Made by a program: the position numbers and the translations under genes. Positions 25 to 57,743 of a stretch of 62,292 nucleotides of DNA are shown piece by piece. The first letter of the stretch is position 1, and every line of letters starts with the position of its first letter. The notes beneath the pieces are model-generated. The model saw nothing but the letters and a program-made list of their open reading frames with translations, made no database searches and was not told where the DNA came from. Origin of the DNA: a virus; IMG/VR virus record IMGVR_UViG_3300047443_000063, positions 1 to 62,292 of that record, one strand, 5' to 3'.

Positions 25-112
25 GGAGGTGTGGCCGAGTGGTTTAAGGCAACGGTCTTGAAAACCGTCGACTGTAACAGGTCCATGAGTTCGAATCCCA
101 TCGCCTCCGCCA
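25..112 (+). tRNA. tRNA-Ser (anticodon UGA)
   Basis: Full cloverleaf with a long variable arm typical of tRNA-Ser. The acceptor stem GGAGGTG (25-31) pairs with CGCCTCC (102-108), the discriminator is G109 and CCA is encoded at 110-112. The seven-base anticodon loop CTTGAAA (57-63) gives anticodon TGA at 59-61. The prophage core repeat starts inside the anticodon loop, so the 3' half of this gene was supplied by the phage and the gene was restored on integration. Confidence 0.97.
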
Positions 113-113
113 T
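57..113 (+). repeat. attL core
   Basis: This segment is identical to 57687-57743 over 57 bp, starting in the anticodon loop and ending one base after CCA. The base before the core differs (T56 versus A57686), as does the base after it (A114 versus C57744). These differences define the exact repeat ends. Confidence 0.93.
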
Positions 114-36697: not shown

Positions 36698-36901
36698 TTA
36701 GGCGGCGGACTGCTTGTTGTGATGCGCAGGAAATGGCTTCAACTCCTGAGCCTCAAACGAGCCATCAGCACGCTCGGTTACATAAACCTCGCGATCCGCC
36801 CTCAAGGCCTTGCTGATACCGCCTTGGCTCATGCGAAGCGCTGCTGCGGCTTTGATCTGCCCAACCTTCGCGACAAATTCTTTAAGTGGTGTGCGTTGCA
36901 T
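36698..36901 (-). CDS. cro: Cro-like repressor
   Basis: 67 residues, first gene leftward from the cI-cro operator region. The helix-turn-helix is FVAKVGQIKAAAALRMSQGG then ISKALRADREVYV, like Cro proteins of lambda-type phages. It should bind the three operator sites at 36932-36995 and shut off cI. AGGAG lies before the ATG. Confidence 0.85.
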   Translation of the reverse strand: MQRTPLKEFVAKVGQIKAAAALRMSQGGISKALRADREVYVTERADGSFEAQELKPFPAHHNKQSAA

Positions 36902-37005: not shown

Positions 37006-37728
37006 ATGAATAAACCGACCAAAAAACGCTCGCTCAGTGACATCGAAAAGGCTGAGTGCGAAGCGTTAAATGCCATTTACAAGGCAAAAAAGAAGGCCCT
37101 GGGGATCAGTCAGGAAAAAATCGCGATCGAGGGCTTGAAGGCGAATAGCCAGAGCGCTGCCAGCCATTATTTGACTGGGCGAAATGCTCTTAATATTGAG
37201 GCGGCGGCAGTTTTTGCCCGTTACCTTCAGGTTCCGGTTTCAGACTTCAGCGAGCGCCTGGCTAAGGAAATCAGGGGGATTTCTGATTCGTCCGAATCCA
37301 ATGTGGGCGAAGCCCGCCAGCCTGTTGAGTCCTACCGTTATCCAGTAATCAGCTGGGTAGCCGCCGGCGCCTGGGCCGAAGCCGTGGAACCCTACCCGGC
37401 CGGCTTCTCTGATCGCTACGAGTTTTCCGAGTACGACTCGAAGGGGGCCGCGTTTTGGCTGGAGGTCAAAGGGGACTCGATGACCTCGCCTGTCGGCCAA
37501 AGCGTTACGGAAGGCACGCTGATTCTGGTGGACACGGAGGCTGAAGCAGCGCCCGGGAAGCTGGTGATCGCCAAGCTGCCGGATAGCAATGAGGCGACGT
37601 TCAAGAAGCTGGTCAATGATGGCGGGAAGCTTTTCCTGAAACCGCTGAATCCAGCCTGGCGAATCGAACCGTTCAATGAGGACTGTCGGATCGTTGGTGT
37701 TGTGGTTCGCGCGCTGCAGAAGTTTTAG
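37006..37728 (+). CDS. cI: CI-like repressor (HTH plus S24 peptidase)
   Basis: 240 residues. The N-terminal helix-turn-helix (ALGISQEKIAIEGLKANSQS, AASHYLTG) is followed by a hinge and an S24/LexA-type domain with cleavage pair Ala-Gly in ISWVAAGAWAE (about 118-119), nucleophile Ser in VKGDSMTSP (about 160) and Lys in NEATFKKL (about 201). RecA-stimulated self-cleavage would trigger induction. It lacks a Shine-Dalgarno, see PRM. Confidence 0.92.
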   Translation: MNKPTKKRSLSDIEKAECEALNAIYKAKKKALGISQEKIAIEGLKANSQSAASHYLTGRNALNIEAAAVFARYLQVPVSDFSERLAKEIRGISDSSESNVGEARQPVESYRYPVISWVAAGAWAEAVEPYPAGFSDRYEFSEYDSKGAAFWLEVKGDSMTSPVGQSVTEGTLILVDTEAEAAPGKLVIAKLPDSNEATFKKLVNDGGKLFLKPLNPAWRIEPFNEDCRIVGVVVRALQKF

Positions 37729-37876
37729 GGCTATGGCCCAGCAGCAGATCGCGATTCTGGGCCACGTGTTCTAGTGGGGCATGTTCGCGCGGTGAGCCAG
37801 CCAAAAATGGCAAAGCATCTGTGGTTTGATCCAATTTTTTCGGCCTTCGACCGTATAGCACAGGGAAGTCAGGTAG

Positions 37877-38620
37877 ATGCCTGAAATCATCAACGCCATT
37901 GAAATAGTGCGACAAAGCCATCAGGGATATTCAATAAAGCCCTTCATTGTCCGCGCTGATGATGGGCATTCGTATTTTGTCAAAGGACTATCAAAATCGG
38001 GTGGTCCAGCCCTCATTTCAGAGGTTCTTGGGGCGGAGCTTGGTAGGAGCCTTGAACTCCCAATTCCGCCATGGCGCCTCATGCACGTACCTTCTGAGCT
38101 CATAGGCTTCAGCGCCATACCCAATGTTGATGACCTTGGTGGAGGGCTAGCGTTTGCATCCAGAGCAGTAGAAAACGCCTCCGACTTTACACTGAGCAAC
38201 ATAAACACCACTTCGGCTGAACTGAGGAGAAGGGTTCTGCTCTTCGATTGGTGGGTTCGGAACGAAGATCGCTGCCTAGGGCCCATGGGCGGAAACGTGA
38301 ATCTAATCTTGGATGCTCAGGGCTCCTTGAACGTCATCGATCACAACCTGGCGTTTGACAGAACCTTCAATTGCGATGACTTTATAGAAAACCATGTATT
38401 TCGAGATAGTCGTGCGGATTTCAGGGATTACGTCACCCGTCAGGAATACTCGCAATTGCTTAACGAAGCGGTCTTAAACTGGGGTACGATCACTGCCCTT
38501 CTGCCGGATGAATGGATTTACCGAGACAGCGACCACATTGACGAGACCGAGCCTACATTGGCTGACCGTCTAGAAATTCTAGAAGTGTTCAAGGAAGAGC
38601 GGTTCTGGGGACCCCTATGA
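37877..38620 (+). CDS. HipA-like kinase (HipA_2 type)
   Basis: 247 residues. A kinase core without the HipA N-terminal lobe extension: the phosphate-binding side has YFVKGLSKSGG (lysine about 36), the catalytic loop is LLFDWWVRNEDR...GGNVNLI, and the metal-binding DFG-equivalent is VIDHNLAF. This is the single-gene HipA_2 family rather than classic HipA with HipB. The stop overlaps the start of the DUF3037 gene as ATGA. It lies downstream of cI in the same direction, with a 148-bp gap, so it is likely expressed in the lysogen. Substrate unknown. Confidence 0.85.
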   Translation: MPEIINAIEIVRQSHQGYSIKPFIVRADDGHSYFVKGLSKSGGPALISEVLGAELGRSLELPIPPWRLMHVPSELIGFSAIPNVDDLGGGLAFASRAVENASDFTLSNINTTSAELRRRVLLFDWWVRNEDRCLGPMGGNVNLILDAQGSLNVIDHNLAFDRTFNCDDFIENHVFRDSRADFRDYVTRQEYSQLLNEAVLNWGTITALLPDEWIYRDSDHIDETEPTLADRLEILEVFKEERFWGPL

Positions 38621-39453
38621 AATACATCTGTAACTACTCAATTCTCAGGTTCTTGCCTTACCCTGAAACAGGTGAATTCGTAAATATTGGTATCGTGCTG
38701 ATCGCCAATAATGGCGACTTTCGCTTCAAAATCGAGCAGAAACGGCAGCGGGTTACGAATTTCTTTCCGAGCCTCGAATCTAAGATTTTTCAGCGGGCTC
38801 GCCGCGAGATGAACGCAGAGCTTGCAAGGCTCAGTGGCTTTTTCACGCAAAACCGTGGCGACCTCGGAGCTCTATTGAGCACCTTCAAGCATCTCATCCA
38901 TCCGCGAGAAACGATGATGCGATTCAGCGATCCTGGAACGATGGCGACTGATAACGCCGACGTTGCGCTGAACACTTTGTTTGACCATTACGTCAATCAC
39001 AGCTTCGCTACTAAGGAGTATCAGGAAACAGTTCTTGAAAAGCAGCTTGGCAAGCTTTTGACAGACTCCCATCTGCGACAGCGATACAGTGAGCGGAAAT
39101 TAGGCACCACCGAGTACCCGGTAAAGTTTCCGTTTGTACTGTGTCAGGGACAGATGCCCGTCCAGGCCATCAAGCCAATCCATCTTGGCCATGACGAGCC
39201 GTCAAAAATCTTGGAGCATGGAGACGCATGGATTTCCAAAGTTAGACGACTGAGTGGGAAACATCAGCTCGCAGAGGACACGCTTTTCATTGCGGGACCA
39301 CCGGAATCTGGAAAACCAAAATTGTTGAAGGCTTACAGAGAAATATCCGAGGAGCTTAAGGCGTTTGAGGGAGTCCGTGTAATCAGCTATGCCGAAGATC
39401 GGGACGAGCTTTTGAAGCAGATAAAGCAAGGCATCCCCACAACGCTGCAGTAA
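38617..39453 (+). CDS. DUF3037 protein, partner of HipA-like kinase
   Basis: 278 residues, starting inside the kinase stop codon (ATGA). The N-terminus (YSILRFLPYPETGEFVNIGI and VLIANNG) is the DUF3037 signature, followed by helical regions. DUF3037 and HipA_2 genes are repeatedly adjacent in bacteria, so they probably form one functional unit such as toxin-antitoxin or phage exclusion. A strong terminator follows at once. Confidence 0.85.
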   Translation: MKYICNYSILRFLPYPETGEFVNIGIVLIANNGDFRFKIEQKRQRVTNFFPSLESKIFQRARREMNAELARLSGFFTQNRGDLGALLSTFKHLIHPRETMMRFSDPGTMATDNADVALNTLFDHYVNHSFATKEYQETVLEKQLGKLLTDSHLRQRYSERKLGTTEYPVKFPFVLCQGQMPVQAIKPIHLGHDEPSKILEHGDAWISKVRRLSGKHQLAEDTLFIAGPPESGKPKLLKAYREISEELKAFEGVRVISYAEDRDELLKQIKQGIPTTLQ

Positions 39454-39457
39454 AAAG

Positions 39458-39482
39458 AGCCCGGCCCAGCGCCGGGCTTTTT
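39458..39482 (+). terminator. Terminator of the cI / HipA-DUF3037 side
   Basis: AGCCCGGC CCAGC GCCGGGCT then TTTTT, six bases after the DUF3037 stop. Confidence 0.9.
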
Positions 39483-47919: not shown

Positions 47920-48360
47920 TCAGGATTTGACGGCTATCGGTGCTTCAATCACGGCACGAAGAATAGAGGTTATTATTTTATAGCTGTAATAACGATCATT
48001 AGCGTCGAGAAGCGTTTCGCCATCCGCCCCCAAGATAATTCCATTTCGATCGACATGGAAACGATCAAGCTCTAACTGCCCACCACCCAACTGACTAATA
48101 AGTAGCACCACCTCTGCGTAACCCGATTTCTCTAAGGTTATATGGCTTAACTGAAGCGTAAATGCTTTGTCCAGAACCTTTCCTTCAATGCGTTTCTGAT
48201 CTGCAACAAGACTCACCTCAACGAGGTTGGCGAAATACTGCTTCGACAGCTCCTGCCAGTGCTCCACCAGATCCAATAGCTTTTCCGATGCATAGTCCCA
48301 ATCACGCTTTACGGTGGCGAGAAGGACCGGAAATTCTTCAGGGTTACGAGTGAAATCCAT
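47920..48360 (-). CDS. Hypothetical AT-rich reverse-strand gene (moron)
   Basis: 146 residues from ATG 48360 (GGAG upstream). It is on the minus strand in the middle of a plus-strand operon and more AT-rich than its neighbours, both moron traits. The N-terminal half is helical, and the second is a beta-strand-rich part ([40 protein letters not shown]). No family recognised. Candidate accessory or defence gene by context. Confidence 0.65.
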
Positions 48361-48493
48361 TACATCTTCTCCGTTCAATAATCCATTGATGGGCCAATCA
48401 AGCCCCCTCTTTGTAGCTCACACGACATTAAATTGCCACCACCCCGCTGCCGCATCCGTTCACGGAGGGCGGCGCCTACCCGAGGTATTCGCA

Positions 48494-49501
48494 ATGCCCG
48501 TTCTCCACAGCGTAATCCACAAGATCGACAAAAAGCCTGACGGTAATCCGGCCATCCTGCACCGCAGCGCCGGCGAGTTGGTCGAGAGTCAGGCCCGCGA
48601 CGAGCTGATTCAACAGTTCAACGAAAGCTATAACGCTAAGCCCGGTAAAGGCTGGGGGTTCTTCCATGCTGAATCAGGCGCCCACCCATTCAGCGGTTGG
48701 CTCGGTAATTACATGTCCGGCGCAGAAGACTTCATGGACTTCAGCAATCTCGCTGTCGAGCACCTGGTAAAACTGATGGAAGAGTCAAATCTATCAGTCG
48801 GTGGGAACGCGCTTTTCTGTCATTACCTGCAAGGCATGACCGATTACCTGGTCATCGCTCTGGTCCAGGAAACAGAAGCGGTAATCATGACTGAACACCT
48901 GGCACTACAGCCCATCCGGCGCCTGGACATCGACAGCATCTTCCTCGCGGCGCGGATCAATCTGTCCGAATGGAAAAACAATCCAGCTTCGAAGCAATAC
49001 GTCTCTTTCCTCAAAGCCAAGAAGGGTCGCCGCGTCACCGAGTACTTCCGCGACTTCATCGGTTGCCAGGAAGGGGTCGATGGCCCGGGCGAAACCCGAA
49101 CCTTGCTGAAAGCGTTCAGTGACTTCGTTGAAAGCGAGGACCTGGGCGAAGATGCCGCCCGCGAGAAGACCGAAACACTGGTCAGCTATGCGATGTCCCA
49201 GGCCAAGCTGGGCGAGCCGATCACGCTCGACGAACTGTCCGAAGTGCTCGACGACGACCAGCCACTGGCGTTTTCAGAGTTCGTTCAGGGCAAGGGCTAC
49301 GGCCTTTCAGCTTCAATCCCGCCGGACAAGAAGACCCTGAATAAATTCCGGCGCTTCACCGGCCGTATTGACGGCCTGTCGATCAGCTTCGAGCAGCATC
49401 TGCTCGGCTCCAAGGTCAAGTTCGACGAAGCCGACGGCACGCTGACGCTTAGCCAGCTGCCAACCCAGCTCACTGACCAACTGAAGCGCGCAGCCGCCTG
49501 A
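48494..49501 (+). CDS. Phage NdpA/YejK nucleoid-associated protein
   Basis: 335 residues from ATG 48494. The start [15 protein letters not shown], the segment [20 protein letters not shown] and [20 protein letters not shown] with [20 protein letters not shown] mark the YejK/NdpA family, of typical length (335 residues). Host NdpA binds the nucleoid. A phage copy may displace it, compact phage DNA or alter host transcription; no direct evidence here. Confidence 0.9.
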
Positions 49502-49557: not shown

Positions 49558-50622
49558 ATGACCCCCTCCCACCAGATACTGGTCGGCGACTGCATCGATA
49601 TGATGCGGACTCTGCCCGACCAGTCAGTGCAGTGCTGCGTGACCAGCCCGCCCTACTTCGGGTTGCGGGATTACGGTGTCGACGGGCAGATTGGCCTGGA
49701 ACAAACACCAGCCGAGTTCATCGAGCGCTTGGTCGAAGTCTTCCGGGAAGTGCGTCGAATACTCCGCGACGACGGCACGGCCTGGGTGAACATGGGTGAC
49801 AGCTACGCAGCACGCTCAACTGGGAATTTGTCGTTTCGCCGTGATAGAGCTGCCGTCTCGCCTGATCGCGCACCGCTGTCAGAAGGGATCAAAGTCAAGG
49901 ACATGATGGGCATGCCCTGGCGTCTCGCCTTCGCTCTGCAGGATGACGGTTGGTTTTTGCGGCAAGACATCATCTGGCACAAACCGAACCCGATGCCGGA
50001 GAGCGTACGGGACCGGTGCACAAAGTCACACGAGTACATATTTCTGCTGAGCAAATCCTCGAAATACTACTTCGACCAGGGCGCGATCCTCGAACCCTGC
50101 TCGCCGAACACCCACAACCGACTTTCACAAGACGTCCTCGCACAGATTGGCAGTGACCGGGCCAACGGCGGGGCCAAGAGCAACGGCAACATGAAGGCAG
50201 TGGCCAGAAAGTCAAACGGGGTAGGCTGGGGGCACGGCACTGACGGTGAGGAACGCGGCCGGGGCCGGATCAAAGACAACGAGTCGATGAATTCGGCCCT
50301 TGCGGTGATGCCGAGCGAGCGAAACAAGCGCACAGTTTGGATGGTTCCGACGCACAGCTTCAAGGGAGCTCACTTCGCGACGTTCCCACCAGACCTGATC
50401 AGACCATGCGTGTTGGCTGGTGCGCCGCGTGGAGGTGTCGTGCTGGACCCATTCGGCGGCGCCGGTACCACAGCAGTGGTCGCCATGCAGGAAGGTCGCA
50501 AGTCAGTCCTCTGCGAACTAAATCCGGACTACGCCGCGATGGCCGAGCGAAGGATCGCGGCGGCCTGGCTCAACGGCGCGGCGCAGATGGACGTGTTTCA
50601 CGATTCTGCGCCTGCCGCCTGA
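49558..50622 (+). CDS. Site-specific DNA methyltransferase (N4/N6, beta type)
   Basis: 354 residues. Motif IV is TSPPYFGL near residue 27 and motif I (SAM site) DPFGGAGTT near 297, so the order is IV-TRD-I, the beta class. ILVGDCIDMMRTLPD before motif IV is typical. Between them lies a ~150-residue target-recognition part. TSPPY is found in N4-cytosine and some N6-adenine enzymes; which base cannot be told. No restriction partner is present, so it probably protects phage DNA. Confidence 0.92.
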   Translation: MTPSHQILVGDCIDMMRTLPDQSVQCCVTSPPYFGLRDYGVDGQIGLEQTPAEFIERLVEVFREVRRILRDDGTAWVNMGDSYAARSTGNLSFRRDRAAVSPDRAPLSEGIKVKDMMGMPWRLAFALQDDGWFLRQDIIWHKPNPMPESVRDRCTKSHEYIFLLSKSSKYYFDQGAILEPCSPNTHNRLSQDVLAQIGSDRANGGAKSNGNMKAVARKSNGVGWGHGTDGEERGRGRIKDNESMNSALAVMPSERNKRTVWMVPTHSFKGAHFATFPPDLIRPCVLAGAPRGGVVLDPFGGAGTTAVVAMQEGRKSVLCELNPDYAAMAERRIAAAWLNGAAQMDVFHDSAPAA

Positions 50623-51430: not shown

Positions 51431-53488
51431 ATGTCCGCACAACAGAAGAAACACCCCTTCGATTTCAAAACGCAATACGGACTTGGCTTCAGCACTCAGG
51501 ACGATGAGATCGTTGTCGACTTCTTCTGCGGTGGTGGCGGCGCCGGTACCGGGCTGGAGATGGGCCTGGGCCGTGCGGTGAATGTCGCGAAGAACCACAG
51601 TCCGCAGGCGATCAGCATGCACACCGTCAATCACCCGGGTGCTGTGCATTACACCACCGACGTGTTCGACGGTGATCCAGATACGGAGTGCGGCGGTAAG
51701 GCCGTTGGCTGGTTCCACATGTCGCCGGACTGCACGCATCACAGCCAGGCCGCCGGTGGCCAGCCGCGCAAGCGCGAGATTCGCAACCTGTCGTGGATTG
51801 GCCTGAAGTGGGCCGGCAAGAAGAAGCCTCGCGTCATCAGCCTGGAGAATGTGAAACAGATCCTCCAGTGGGGGCCGCTGATCGCCAAGCGCTGCAAGGC
51901 CACTGGCCGCGTCGTGAAGTTGGGCGGCGGTGTCGCCGCACCTGGTGAGGTGGTTCCGGTCCACCAGCAGTTTCTGGTGCCCGACCCCAAGCGCCGTGGG
52001 CAGACCTGGGCCACGTTCGTTGCCGAGCTGAAGCACCTGGGCTACGACGTTGAGTGGCAAGTGCTGAAGGCTTGCGACTTCGGCGCGCCGACCAGCCGCG
52101 AACGCCTGTTCATGATTGCCCGCTGCGACGGCGAGCCGATTGTCTGGCCAGCACCGACCCACGCCAAGCACCCAGTCAAAGGCCAACAGAAGTGGCGCAC
52201 CGCCGCCGAGTGCATCGACTGGACGATCCCGAGCAAAAGCATTTTCGACCGAGCGAAGCCGCTGGCTCCGGCAACCTTGCGCCGGATCGCCAAGGGCATG
52301 AAGAAATTCGTCATTGATGCCGCTGACCCATTTATCGTGCCAATCGCGAACTGGTCCGGTGAAAGCGTCCAGTCAGCGCACGACCCGCTGCGCACGGTGA
52401 CTTCGTGGCCTCGCGGCGGATCGTTCGCCATGGCCAGTCCGATCATCGCACCAGCCACGCACCAGGGCAGCGATCGAATCAACGACCCGGCCGCCCCTCT
52501 GCCGACGGTGACCTGCGCGAATCGCGGTGAGCTGACACTGATCAGCCCTACCTTGATACAAACCGGATACGGCGAGCGTGCCGGCCAAGAGCCGCGAGTG
52601 CCTGGGCTGGACCAGCCGCTGGGCACAGTGGTCGCTGGCGGCGTGAAGCACGCACTCGCCGCCGCGCACCTGGTGAAGTTCCGATTTACTGATGAAGGCA
52701 AGGCACTCAACGAGCCTTTGCCGACCATCACAAGCGGCGGCAACTACCAGCGCCCGGCCGGGGCCGCTCATGCAATGGGTATCTCGACGGTGTTCATGGC
52801 CCAGATGAATGGCGGCTTCAATACCACCGATGCCAAGAGCATCGAAGACCCGATGACCACCGTAACCAACACCGGCAGCCAGCAGCAACTGGTTACGGCG
52901 AACCTGGTGCATCTGCGCGGCAACTGCGATGCGCGGGACGCGGCTGATCCACTGCACACTATCAGTGCCGGCGGCACTCACCACGGGTTGGTCACCGCAT
53001 TCATGGAGCGCCAGTTCGGTGCCAGCGTGGGCCAGGCCGTCGATGAGCCAGCGCCGACCATCACGGCGGGCGGCGGCGGCAAAAGCTCGCTGGTTGAGTT
53101 TCAGCTTTCGCCAGAGGTTGAAGCCGGGGCACTCCGCGTAGCGGCATTCCTTATCAGCTACTACGGCACCGAGAACGTGAGCGGTGCCAACGCGCCAGCA
53201 CCAACGATCACCACCAAGGATCGGCTCGGATTGGTGACCGTCACCATCAAGGGAACGCCATACGTCATCGTCGACATCTGCCTGCGGATGCTGCAACCGG
53301 CCGAGTTGTACAAGGCACAGGGCTTCCCCGCCGACTACATCATCAGCCATGGCGCCGACGGCAAGCCGTTCACCAAGACCCAGCAGGTGCACATGTGCGG
53401 GAACAGCGTCAGCCCTCCACCGATGGCAGCGCTGGCGCGAGCCAACGATCCGTGGCAGGTTGCCGAAAGGCAGTCGAAGGCGGCTTAA
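51431..53488 (+). CDS. C5-cytosine DNA methyltransferase with internal repeats
   Basis: 685 residues, long for the family. Motif I is VVDFFCGGGGAGTGL (about 28-42). The catalytic loop is SPDCTHHS (Cys about 101) rather than the usual PCQ, known in some phage enzymes. Motif VI is SLENVKQI, motif VIII TSRERLFMIAR, motif X GNSVSPPP near the C-terminus. Residues 310-600 hold about eight imperfect repeats with a P..T(V/I)T core (see finding). It probably protects phage DNA from host restriction. Confidence 0.9.
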   Translation: MSAQQKKHPFDFKTQYGLGFSTQDDEIVVDFFCGGGGAGTGLEMGLGRAVNVAKNHSPQAISMHTVNHPGAVHYTTDVFDGDPDTECGGKAVGWFHMSPDCTHHSQAAGGQPRKREIRNLSWIGLKWAGKKKPRVISLENVKQILQWGPLIAKRCKATGRVVKLGGGVAAPGEVVPVHQQFLVPDPKRRGQTWATFVAELKHLGYDVEWQVLKACDFGAPTSRERLFMIARCDGEPIVWPAPTHAKHPVKGQQKWRTAAECIDWTIPSKSIFDRAKPLAPATLRRIAKGMKKFVIDAADPFIVPIANWSGESVQSAHDPLRTVTSWPRGGSFAMASPIIAPATHQGSDRINDPAAPLPTVTCANRGELTLISPTLIQTGYGERAGQEPRVPGLDQPLGTVVAGGVKHALAAAHLVKFRFTDEGKALNEPLPTITSGGNYQRPAGAAHAMGISTVFMAQMNGGFNTTDAKSIEDPMTTVTNTGSQQQLVTANLVHLRGNCDARDAADPLHTISAGGTHHGLVTAFMERQFGASVGQAVDEPAPTITAGGGGKSSLVEFQLSPEVEAGALRVAAFLISYYGTENVSGANAPAPTITTKDRLGLVTVTIKGTPYVIVDICLRMLQPAELYKAQGFPADYIISHGADGKPFTKTQQVHMCGNSVSPPPMAALARANDPWQVAERQSKAA

Positions 53489-56478: not shown

Positions 56479-57546
56479 ATGCGCCCAAGAAAGGCAGCAA
56501 ACAGGGACCTGCCGCCTCGGATGATCCGGCGGGTCAGGACTATGAAAGGTGGTGCGGAATGGGTTGGGTATTACTACGACGGGAGGGATGACGCGGGGAA
56601 GAGGAAAGAAATCCCTCTGGGTGGGGACTTAGATATCGCCAAGGCGGAATGGGCAAAACTGGACTGCAAGCCGGTCCCGCAAAAAAATACGGTGCTGGGG
56701 AAGGTTTTCGACCGGTACGAGGCGGAGATCATCCCTGGGAAAAAGCCAAGAACGCAGAAGGACAACCTACTTTCGCTTACGCAACTCAGGAAAGCCTTCA
56801 GCGACGCGCCTATCAATGCTGTAACGCCGCAGGCGATCGCGCAGTATCGCGACAAACGGACCGGCAAGGTCCGGGCGAATCGAGAGATCTCGTTGCTATC
56901 ACACATCTACAACATCGCCAGGGAATGGGGCATCACTGACAAGGAAAACCCTGCCGCAGGGGTTCGCAAGAACAAAGAGACACCGCGTGACTTCTACGCC
57001 GACGCCACGATCTGGAACGCCGTCTACGGCGCCGCAGTGTCAGAGCTCAAAGACGCCATGGATCTGGCTTACCTCACCGGCCAGCGCCCTGCTGACGTTC
57101 TATCCATGCGCGCCACAGACGTGATCGACAGCTTCCTACAGGTTGCCCAGGGCAAGACCTCGAAGAAACTCCGCATCCGGCTCGACGCCGGGGAGATCAT
57201 CAACGGCCTGGGCGAACTGATTGAAAGGTTGCTTGAGCAGCGGAAGGCGCGCGCGGTCCGGAACCCGTACTTGATCGTCACGGAGGACGGGCGGCGGGTG
57301 ACTGCGCCAATGCTTCGCCTGCGGTTCGACGATGCACGCAATGTGGCGATCGTCAAAGCTCTGGAAAACGAAGACTCGCAGCTCGCCGCAAACATCCGGC
57401 AGTTCCAGTTCCGGGATATCCGGCCGAAGGCAGCCAGTGAGATCGATGACTTAGGACACGCAAGTCGCCTGCTTGGCCACACCGACAAGCGCATCACAGA
57501 GACGGTTTACCGACGCGTCGGCGAGATCGTAAAACCGACTCGATAA
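56479..57546 (+). CDS. int: Tyrosine recombinase (phage integrase)
   Basis: 355 residues. The N-terminal part (MRPRKAANRDLPPRM...GAEWVGYYYDG) is the arm-binding domain. Catalytic residues: Arg in LTGQRPADVL, Lys in AQGKTSKKL, R-D-I-R in FQFRDIRPKAAS (Arg replaces the first His of HxxR as in some phage integrases), His in LLGHTDKRIT and Tyr in VYRR. It recombines the tRNA-Ser core. The end lies 140 bases before attR. Confidence 0.95.
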   Translation: MRPRKAANRDLPPRMIRRVRTMKGGAEWVGYYYDGRDDAGKRKEIPLGGDLDIAKAEWAKLDCKPVPQKNTVLGKVFDRYEAEIIPGKKPRTQKDNLLSLTQLRKAFSDAPINAVTPQAIAQYRDKRTGKVRANREISLLSHIYNIAREWGITDKENPAAGVRKNKETPRDFYADATIWNAVYGAAVSELKDAMDLAYLTGQRPADVLSMRATDVIDSFLQVAQGKTSKKLRIRLDAGEIINGLGELIERLLEQRKARAVRNPYLIVTEDGRRVTAPMLRLRFDDARNVAIVKALENEDSQLAANIRQFQFRDIRPKAASEIDDLGHASRLLGHTDKRITETVYRRVGEIVKPTR

Positions 57547-57686: not shown

Positions 57687-57743
57687 CTTGAAAACCGTCG
57701 ACTGTAACAGGTCCATGAGTTCGAATCCCATCGCCTCCGCCAT
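57687..57743 (+). repeat. attR core
   Basis: Exact copy of 57-113, the 3' half of tRNA-Ser from the anticodon loop through CCA. The bases before 57687 belong to the phage and do not restore the anticodon stem (CGGAC instead of CGGTC), so this copy is not a tRNA gene. Confidence 0.93.

What the first reader, a model, noticed from the sequence alone, without database searches (positions are those of the whole stretch)
37877..39453. HipA_2-type kinase with DUF3037 partner next to cI
A kinase without a HipB-like antitoxin is translationally coupled (ATGA) to a DUF3037 protein and ends in a strong terminator. The unit lies beside cI in the same orientation, the usual slot of lysogen-expressed exclusion genes. 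HipA_2 and DUF3037 are known as neighbours, but their role is not established to my knowledge. This may be a two-gene defence or toxin-antitoxin module carried by the prophage.
Basis: partly seen in the sequence, partly recalled or inferred. Interest (0 to 1): 0.8.

Follow-up and report, generated by a model that had tools for sequence, protein, structure and literature searches.

The report
HipAD defence pair beside prophage repressor
A prophage in a Pseudomonas-type chromosome carries, right behind its repressor gene, a kinase toxin and its antitoxin partner (the HipAD system, recently shown in E. coli to block phages), so this is a distant new member of a known defence system rather than an unknown one.

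Summary
At 37877-38620 (+) lies an intact HipA_2 kinase gene, overlapping by ATGA a DUF3037 gene (38617-39453), followed by a strong terminator and preceded on the same strand by an S24 CI repressor. The prophage (57 to 57743) has a 57-bp tRNA-Ser att repeat. The statement that the pair's role is not established is out of date. PADLOC lists the pair as PDC-M66. In Retron-Sda1 the kinase is required for defence and deleting the DUF3037 gene is toxic (PMC12548924). DS-6, renamed HipAD, loses defence when the kinase is mutated (PMC13092281). GenBank phage PhiR5_1 carries annotated hipA-hipD in the same slot behind cI. The window copy is 31% (HipA) and 29% (HipD) identical to it, keeps every invariant kinase residue and is under strong purifying selection. 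Among 39 phage loci (some near-duplicates), all have the ATGA overlap and 36 have a repressor upstream on the same strand, often of unrelated type. The window also carries a fossil of another repressor's last codons between cI and hipA, evidence that cI was swapped while hipAD stayed. Best reading: a lysogen-expressed HipAD toxin-antitoxin that aborts superinfection. Trigger and kinase target are unknown. Interest is modest.

The parts
37006..37728 (+). CI-type repressor (HTH + Peptidase_S24), first gene of the presumed lysogenic transcript
   Evidence: Pfam PF00717 E 5.7e-26; PHROG 4 repressor E 8.6e-44
37733..37795 (+). Repressor-gene fossil: last ~20 codons plus stop of a different repressor type (reads MAQQQIAILGHVF*WGMFAR*, one internal stop)
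   Evidence: 15 of 17 codons match the end of the repressor preceding hipA in L005, tblastn E 2e-8; the same fossil, open, in L022
37796..37876 (+). hipAD leader; the last ~30 nt with the ribosome-binding site are shared with L005, L022, L006 and L015; no sigma-70-type promoter found
37877..38620 (+). hipA: HipA_2 kinase, presumed toxin/effector; invariant K36, E49, D131 (NED), N140, N142, D155 (VIDH)
   Evidence: Pfam PF20613 E 1.9e-68; PADLOC PDC-M66A E 9.7e-11; alignment of 27; AF2 model pLDDT 88 with kinase-fold matches
38617..39453 (+). hipD: DUF3037 protein, presumed antitoxin/regulator, ATGA overlap with hipA
   Evidence: Pfam PF11236 E 1.2e-21; PADLOC PDC-M66B E 1.5e-20 over residues 6-273
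39454..39482 (+). intrinsic terminator ending the cI-hipA-hipD unit
   Evidence: -20.5 kcal/mol, z -4.3; same hairpin follows hipD in many relatives
36698..36901 (-). Cro, divergent early gene marking the immunity switch
   Evidence: Pfam PF09048 E 1.4e-21

Best explanation
This is a HipAD system: a type II-like toxin-antitoxin pair used by a prophage for defence. HipA (HipA_2 kinase) is the toxin and HipD (DUF3037) is the partner that holds it inactive. In the lysogen the pair is probably made from the cI transcript that runs through hipA and hipD to the terminator, with translation of the two coupled by the ATGA overlap. When another phage infects, HipD's restraint is lifted, the kinase phosphorylates an essential host or phage factor, and infection is aborted, which protects the prophage's host population. 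Shown here: both genes, intact kinase residues, operon anatomy, terminator, purifying selection, and the same slot in many phages. Shown elsewhere for homologues: kinase needed for defence, partner deletion toxic, catalytic mutant loses defence. Inferred: function of this copy, read-through from cI, trigger and phosphorylation target.
For: HMM matches to HipA_2 and DUF3037 and to both PADLOC PDC-M66 components over nearly full length. PMC12548924: in Retron-Sda1, HipA deletion eliminates defence against Bas51 and DUF3037 deletion is toxic, independent of the retron. PMC13092281: DS-6/HipAD loses defence when a catalytic residue is mutated; HipA-HipD interaction predicted by AlphaFold3. PhiR5_1 (PV340545) has cI-hipA-hipD-kil with the same overlap and orientation, and 284 of 5426 complete E. 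coli genomes carry a close copy of that pair; the one inspected sits beside an S24 repressor. All 39 phage loci have the ATGA overlap and 36 have a repressor upstream on the same strand, 33 of them within 600 nt. dN/dS against L005 is 0.06 (hipA) and 0.04 (hipD).
Against: Identity to the annotated E. coli pair is only about 30%, so phage specificity and even the use could differ. HipD here has no detectable DUF1829 domain, which DS-6B is said to have. No expression or phage-plating data exist for this copy. The Brenes and Laub paper that named HipAD could not be read.
Confidence: 0.8

Rival explanations
1. HipAD mainly stabilises the prophage (addiction): loss of the prophage leaves stable HipA kinase without fresh HipD and stops growth of cured cells; phage defence is a side effect.
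For: Toxin-antitoxin behaviour of the homologue; carriage on mobile elements, 20 plasmid records and prophages.
Against: An integrated prophage is already stably inherited; homologues were found by defence assays; in phages the pair keeps to the repressor slot typical of exclusion genes.
Confidence: 0.12
2. The pair regulates the prophage's own lysogeny decision: the kinase or the possibly DNA-binding HipD modulates the neighbouring repressor.
For: Constant adjacency to repressor genes in phages; AlphaFold3 in PMC13092281 predicted HipD-DNA contact; another Pseudomonas prophage kinase module controls lysogeny as well as defence (PMC11341870, abstract).
Against: The same pair sits beside repressors only ~25% identical to each other and in chromosomes with no repressor detected upstream, so specific control of one repressor is unlikely.
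Confidence: 0.05
3. The cassette is a decaying passenger without function in this phage.
For: A Salmonella phage (SW-37) has a disrupted hipA with an intact hipD, so decay does occur.
Against: In the window both ORFs are intact, all invariant residues are kept and dN/dS is about 0.05.
Confidence: 0.03

Closest known systems
HipAD of Escherichia phage PhiR5_1 (PV340545) and of E. coli lambdoid prophages; DS-6 in PMC13092281, named after Brenes and Laub 2025
   Same: Gene order, ATGA overlap, both families, position right behind cI on the same strand
   Different: Window proteins are about 31% (HipA) and 29% (HipD) identical; Pseudomonas-type phage; different genes follow; no DUF1829 match; not shown here that PhiR5_1 and DS-6 are the same sequence
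PDC-M66 (PADLOC) / the HipA-DUF3037 unit of Retron-Sda1 (PMC12548924)
   Same: Both components match over nearly full length
   Different: No Rfam retron RNA in the window and no reverse transcriptase gene among its neighbours; here it is repressor-linked in a prophage
E. coli HipBA
   Same: HipA-like kinase toxin, two-gene toxin-antitoxin logic
   Different: No HipB-like HTH antitoxin; antitoxin second and unrelated; HipA_2 instead of the HipA_C families
Lambda RexAB and P. putida RexABpp
   Same: Two-gene exclusion unit downstream of CI, presumably on the repressor transcript (PMC12894663)
   Different: Unrelated proteins; no membrane effector

Membership tests
HipAD / PDC-M66 | HipA_2-type kinase matching the system's own model | tested here: met
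   PF20613 E 1.9e-68; PDC-M66A E 9.7e-11 over residues 5-222
HipAD / PDC-M66 | DUF3037 partner encoded directly downstream in an operon | tested here: met
   PF11236 E 1.2e-21; PDC-M66B E 1.5e-20 over residues 6-273; ATGA overlap
HipAD / PDC-M66 | intact kinase active site | tested here: met
   K36, E49, D131, N140, N142 and D155 are invariant in 27 sequences including PhiR5_1 HipA; kinase-fold matches of the model
HipAD / PDC-M66 | DUF1829 region in HipD (reported for DS-6B; probably not defining) | tested here: not met
   No PF08862 match at E 10. PhiR5_1 HipD, annotated as HipD, and four of the other relatives scanned also show DUF3037 as the only family over its cut-off, so this feature does not define the family
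HipAD / PDC-M66 | kinase toxic without HipD, and defence against phage | not testable with these tools
   Needs expression; shown for homologues only
HipBA | HipB-like HTH antitoxin and HipA_C kinase family | tested here: not met
   No HTH family in HipD and no HipA_C match at E 0.01
RexAB-type exclusion | RexA/RexB homologues with a membrane protein | tested here: not met
   Proteins are HipA_2 and DUF3037; only position and two-gene layout are shared

The most novel reading that the evidence does not exclude
In temperate phages HipAD is specifically a repressor-coupled module: it has no conserved promoter of its own, is fed by read-through from whatever CI gene lies upstream, and stays in place while CI genes of unrelated specificity are exchanged, so toxin-antitoxin dose follows lysogenic state and the system could respond to loss of the repressor transcript or to rival immunity types. 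HipD's C-terminal half may be a catalytically dead PD-(D/E)XK-like domain that senses phage DNA.
Probability: 0.15. Interest if true: 0.55.

Novelty: new member of a known kind. Interest (0 to 1): 0.3.

Why it matters
It extends a defence toxin-antitoxin system validated in E. coli to a divergent branch (about 30% identity) common in Pseudomonas-type temperate phages. It also shows that in phages the pair keeps one slot, directly behind the repressor, across many immunity types. That gives a ready panel of natural variants for finding the trigger and the kinase target, which are unknown.

Tried and rejected
(1) Sequence search of the PDB found no convincing relative of either protein. (2) HipD model against PDB: no match at E <= 0.001; several weak matches are PD-(D/E)XK nucleases (BstEII, SfsA, EcoO109I, EndoMS, Cdn1, Card1, Cap4, PaqCI, Shedu; E 0.009-0.35). 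Suggestive only, model pTM 0.57, no active-site test possible. (3) DUF1829 in HipD: none. (4) A dedicated hipAD promoter: the scan found no sigma-70-type site between cI and hipA, and beyond the last ~30-40 nt the leader is poorly conserved outside the fossil. (5) Repressor fossil as a signature specific to hipAD: rejected by a control, since phages MR13 and Aurca01 without hipAD also carry short repressor tails just after cI. (6) HipBA membership: rejected. (7) Reading Brenes and Laub 2025: not held. (8) A first scripted scan for fossils timed out and was replaced by tblastn.

Full report
OBSERVATION. The window is a virus record of 62,292 bases, held as a record of its own. Two overlapping ORFs lie at 37877-38620 (247 aa) and 38617-39453 (278 aa) on the + strand, joined by ATGA. 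They match HipA_2 (E 1.9e-68) and DUF3037 (E 1.2e-21). Upstream on the same strand is a CI repressor (37006-37728), with Cro divergent. A hairpin of -20.5 kcal/mol (z -4.3) with a U tract closes the unit. A 57-bp repeat of the tRNA-Ser 3' end at 57-113 and 57687-57743, with an integrase at 56479-57546, marks the prophage ends; chromosomal genes follow (FMN reductase, acyl-CoA dehydrogenase, sigma-54 activator). The structural genes are most like those of Pseudomonas phages phiAH14a, PseuP_222 and Medea1, so the host is probably a Pseudomonas.

WHAT IT IS. PMC12548924 (PLoS Biol 2025): within the Retron-Sda1 operon, deletion of the HipA kinase eliminates defence against Bas51, deletion of DUF3037 is toxic, and reverse transcriptase and ncRNA are dispensable; the authors conclude a stand-alone system of kinase toxin and DUF3037 neutraliser. 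PMC13092281 (Science 2026): DS-6, renamed HipAD after Brenes and Laub 2025 (Cell Host Microbe; not held), loses defence when a catalytic residue of the kinase is mutated. Escherichia phage PhiR5_1 carries genes annotated HipA toxin and HipD antitoxin directly behind cI, same orientation, same 4-nt overlap. Close copies of that pair occur in 284 of 5426 complete E. coli genomes, and in the one inspected it again sits beside an S24 repressor in a lambdoid prophage. The window pair is therefore a distant member of HipAD: 31% and 29% identical to PhiR5_1.

IS IT INTACT? In 27 kinases K36, E49, D131 (the NED loop), N140, N142 and D155 (the VIDH Asp) are invariant. The AF2 model (pLDDT 88) matches PI4KII-alpha and H. 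pylori CtkA by Foldseek at modest scores, which fits the HipA/PI-kinase-like group. Against L005, dN is 0.049 and dS 0.78 for hipA, and dN 0.057 and dS 1.28 for hipD: strong purifying selection on both.

SETTING. Among 39 phage loci examined (the window; some are near-duplicates), all have the ATGA overlap and 36 have a repressor upstream on the same strand, 33 of them within 600 nt. SW-37 has an HTH protein there instead, and no repressor was found in the two closely related loci L019 and L020. The repressors are often unrelated while HipA is nearly the same: window and L005 share 90% of HipA but 25% of CI; L007 and L008 95% and 28%; L033 and L036 95% and 27%. Phages with a related cI-cro region but without hipAD (MR13, Aurca01, Medea1, E220) have other small genes or a gap in the slot. 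In bacterial genomes the pair also occurs without a detected repressor: 71 of 80 DUF3037 loci have the kinase upstream, but only 7 have a repressor hit upstream with the simple profile used, which will miss some. So hipAD is a general module that in phages occupies one slot.

A FOSSIL AT THE JOINT. Between CI and hipA the window holds, at 37733-37795, the last codons and stop of a different repressor type: MAQQQIAILGHVF*WGMFAR*, against ...QQISILGHVFWWGMFAR* at the end of the repressor of L005 (tblastn E 2e-8). L022, with the window's CI type, holds the same fossil without the internal stop; L011 and L006 hold fossils of yet other types. The simplest history is that hipAD arrived or resided behind an L005-type repressor, and the repressor gene was later replaced with the joint near its 3' end. 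A control shows that short repressor tails also follow cI in MR13 and Aurca01, which lack hipAD, so repressor exchange at this point is general in these phages and not caused by hipAD.

MECHANISM. Most likely: HipA kinase is held by HipD in the lysogen; infection by another phage lifts the restraint; the kinase stops growth or phage production. Toxin, neutraliser and kinase requirement are shown for homologues. The trigger, the target and activity of this copy are inferred or unknown. Transcription from the repressor promoter is inferred from adjacency, absence of a terminator or promoter-like site in the gap, weak conservation of the gap and the closing terminator. HipD's C-terminal half gives only weak PD-(D/E)XK-like fold matches.

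VERDICT. A real, intact, probably functional HipAD toxin-antitoxin defence unit; a new member of a known kind. Interest is modest because the system and its prophage location are already published.

Noticed in passing
window 37733-37795: Fossil of the C-terminal codons and stop of a heterologous repressor between cI and hipA; similar fossils in L022, L011 and L006, and short ones in phages without hipAD (MR13, Aurca01).
   Followed up: yes
window 57-113 and 57687-57743: 57-bp perfect repeat of the tRNA-Ser(TGA) 3' end: attL/attR of the prophage; window bases beyond 57743 are host chromosome (FMN reductase, acyl-CoA dehydrogenase, sigma-54 activator).
   Followed up: yes
window 48314-49501: Prophage-encoded NA37/YejK nucleoid-associated protein (E 1.8e-79); a YejK domain is among those newly validated in anti-phage defence in PMC13092281, so this may be a second defence gene.
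   Followed up: no
window 49558-50622 and 51431-53488: Two phage DNA methyltransferases (N6/N4 type and C5-cytosine type); no neighbouring endonuclease was sought in detail.
   Followed up: no
L003 4894-5630 (Salmonella phage SW-37): hipA is split into two ORFs while hipD is intact: the pattern expected if the antitoxin may outlive the toxin.
   Followed up: partly
HipD model (window 38617-39453): Foldseek's weak matches repeatedly include PD-(D/E)XK nucleases (E 0.009-0.35); a possibly inactive nuclease-like or DNA-binding domain.
   Followed up: partly
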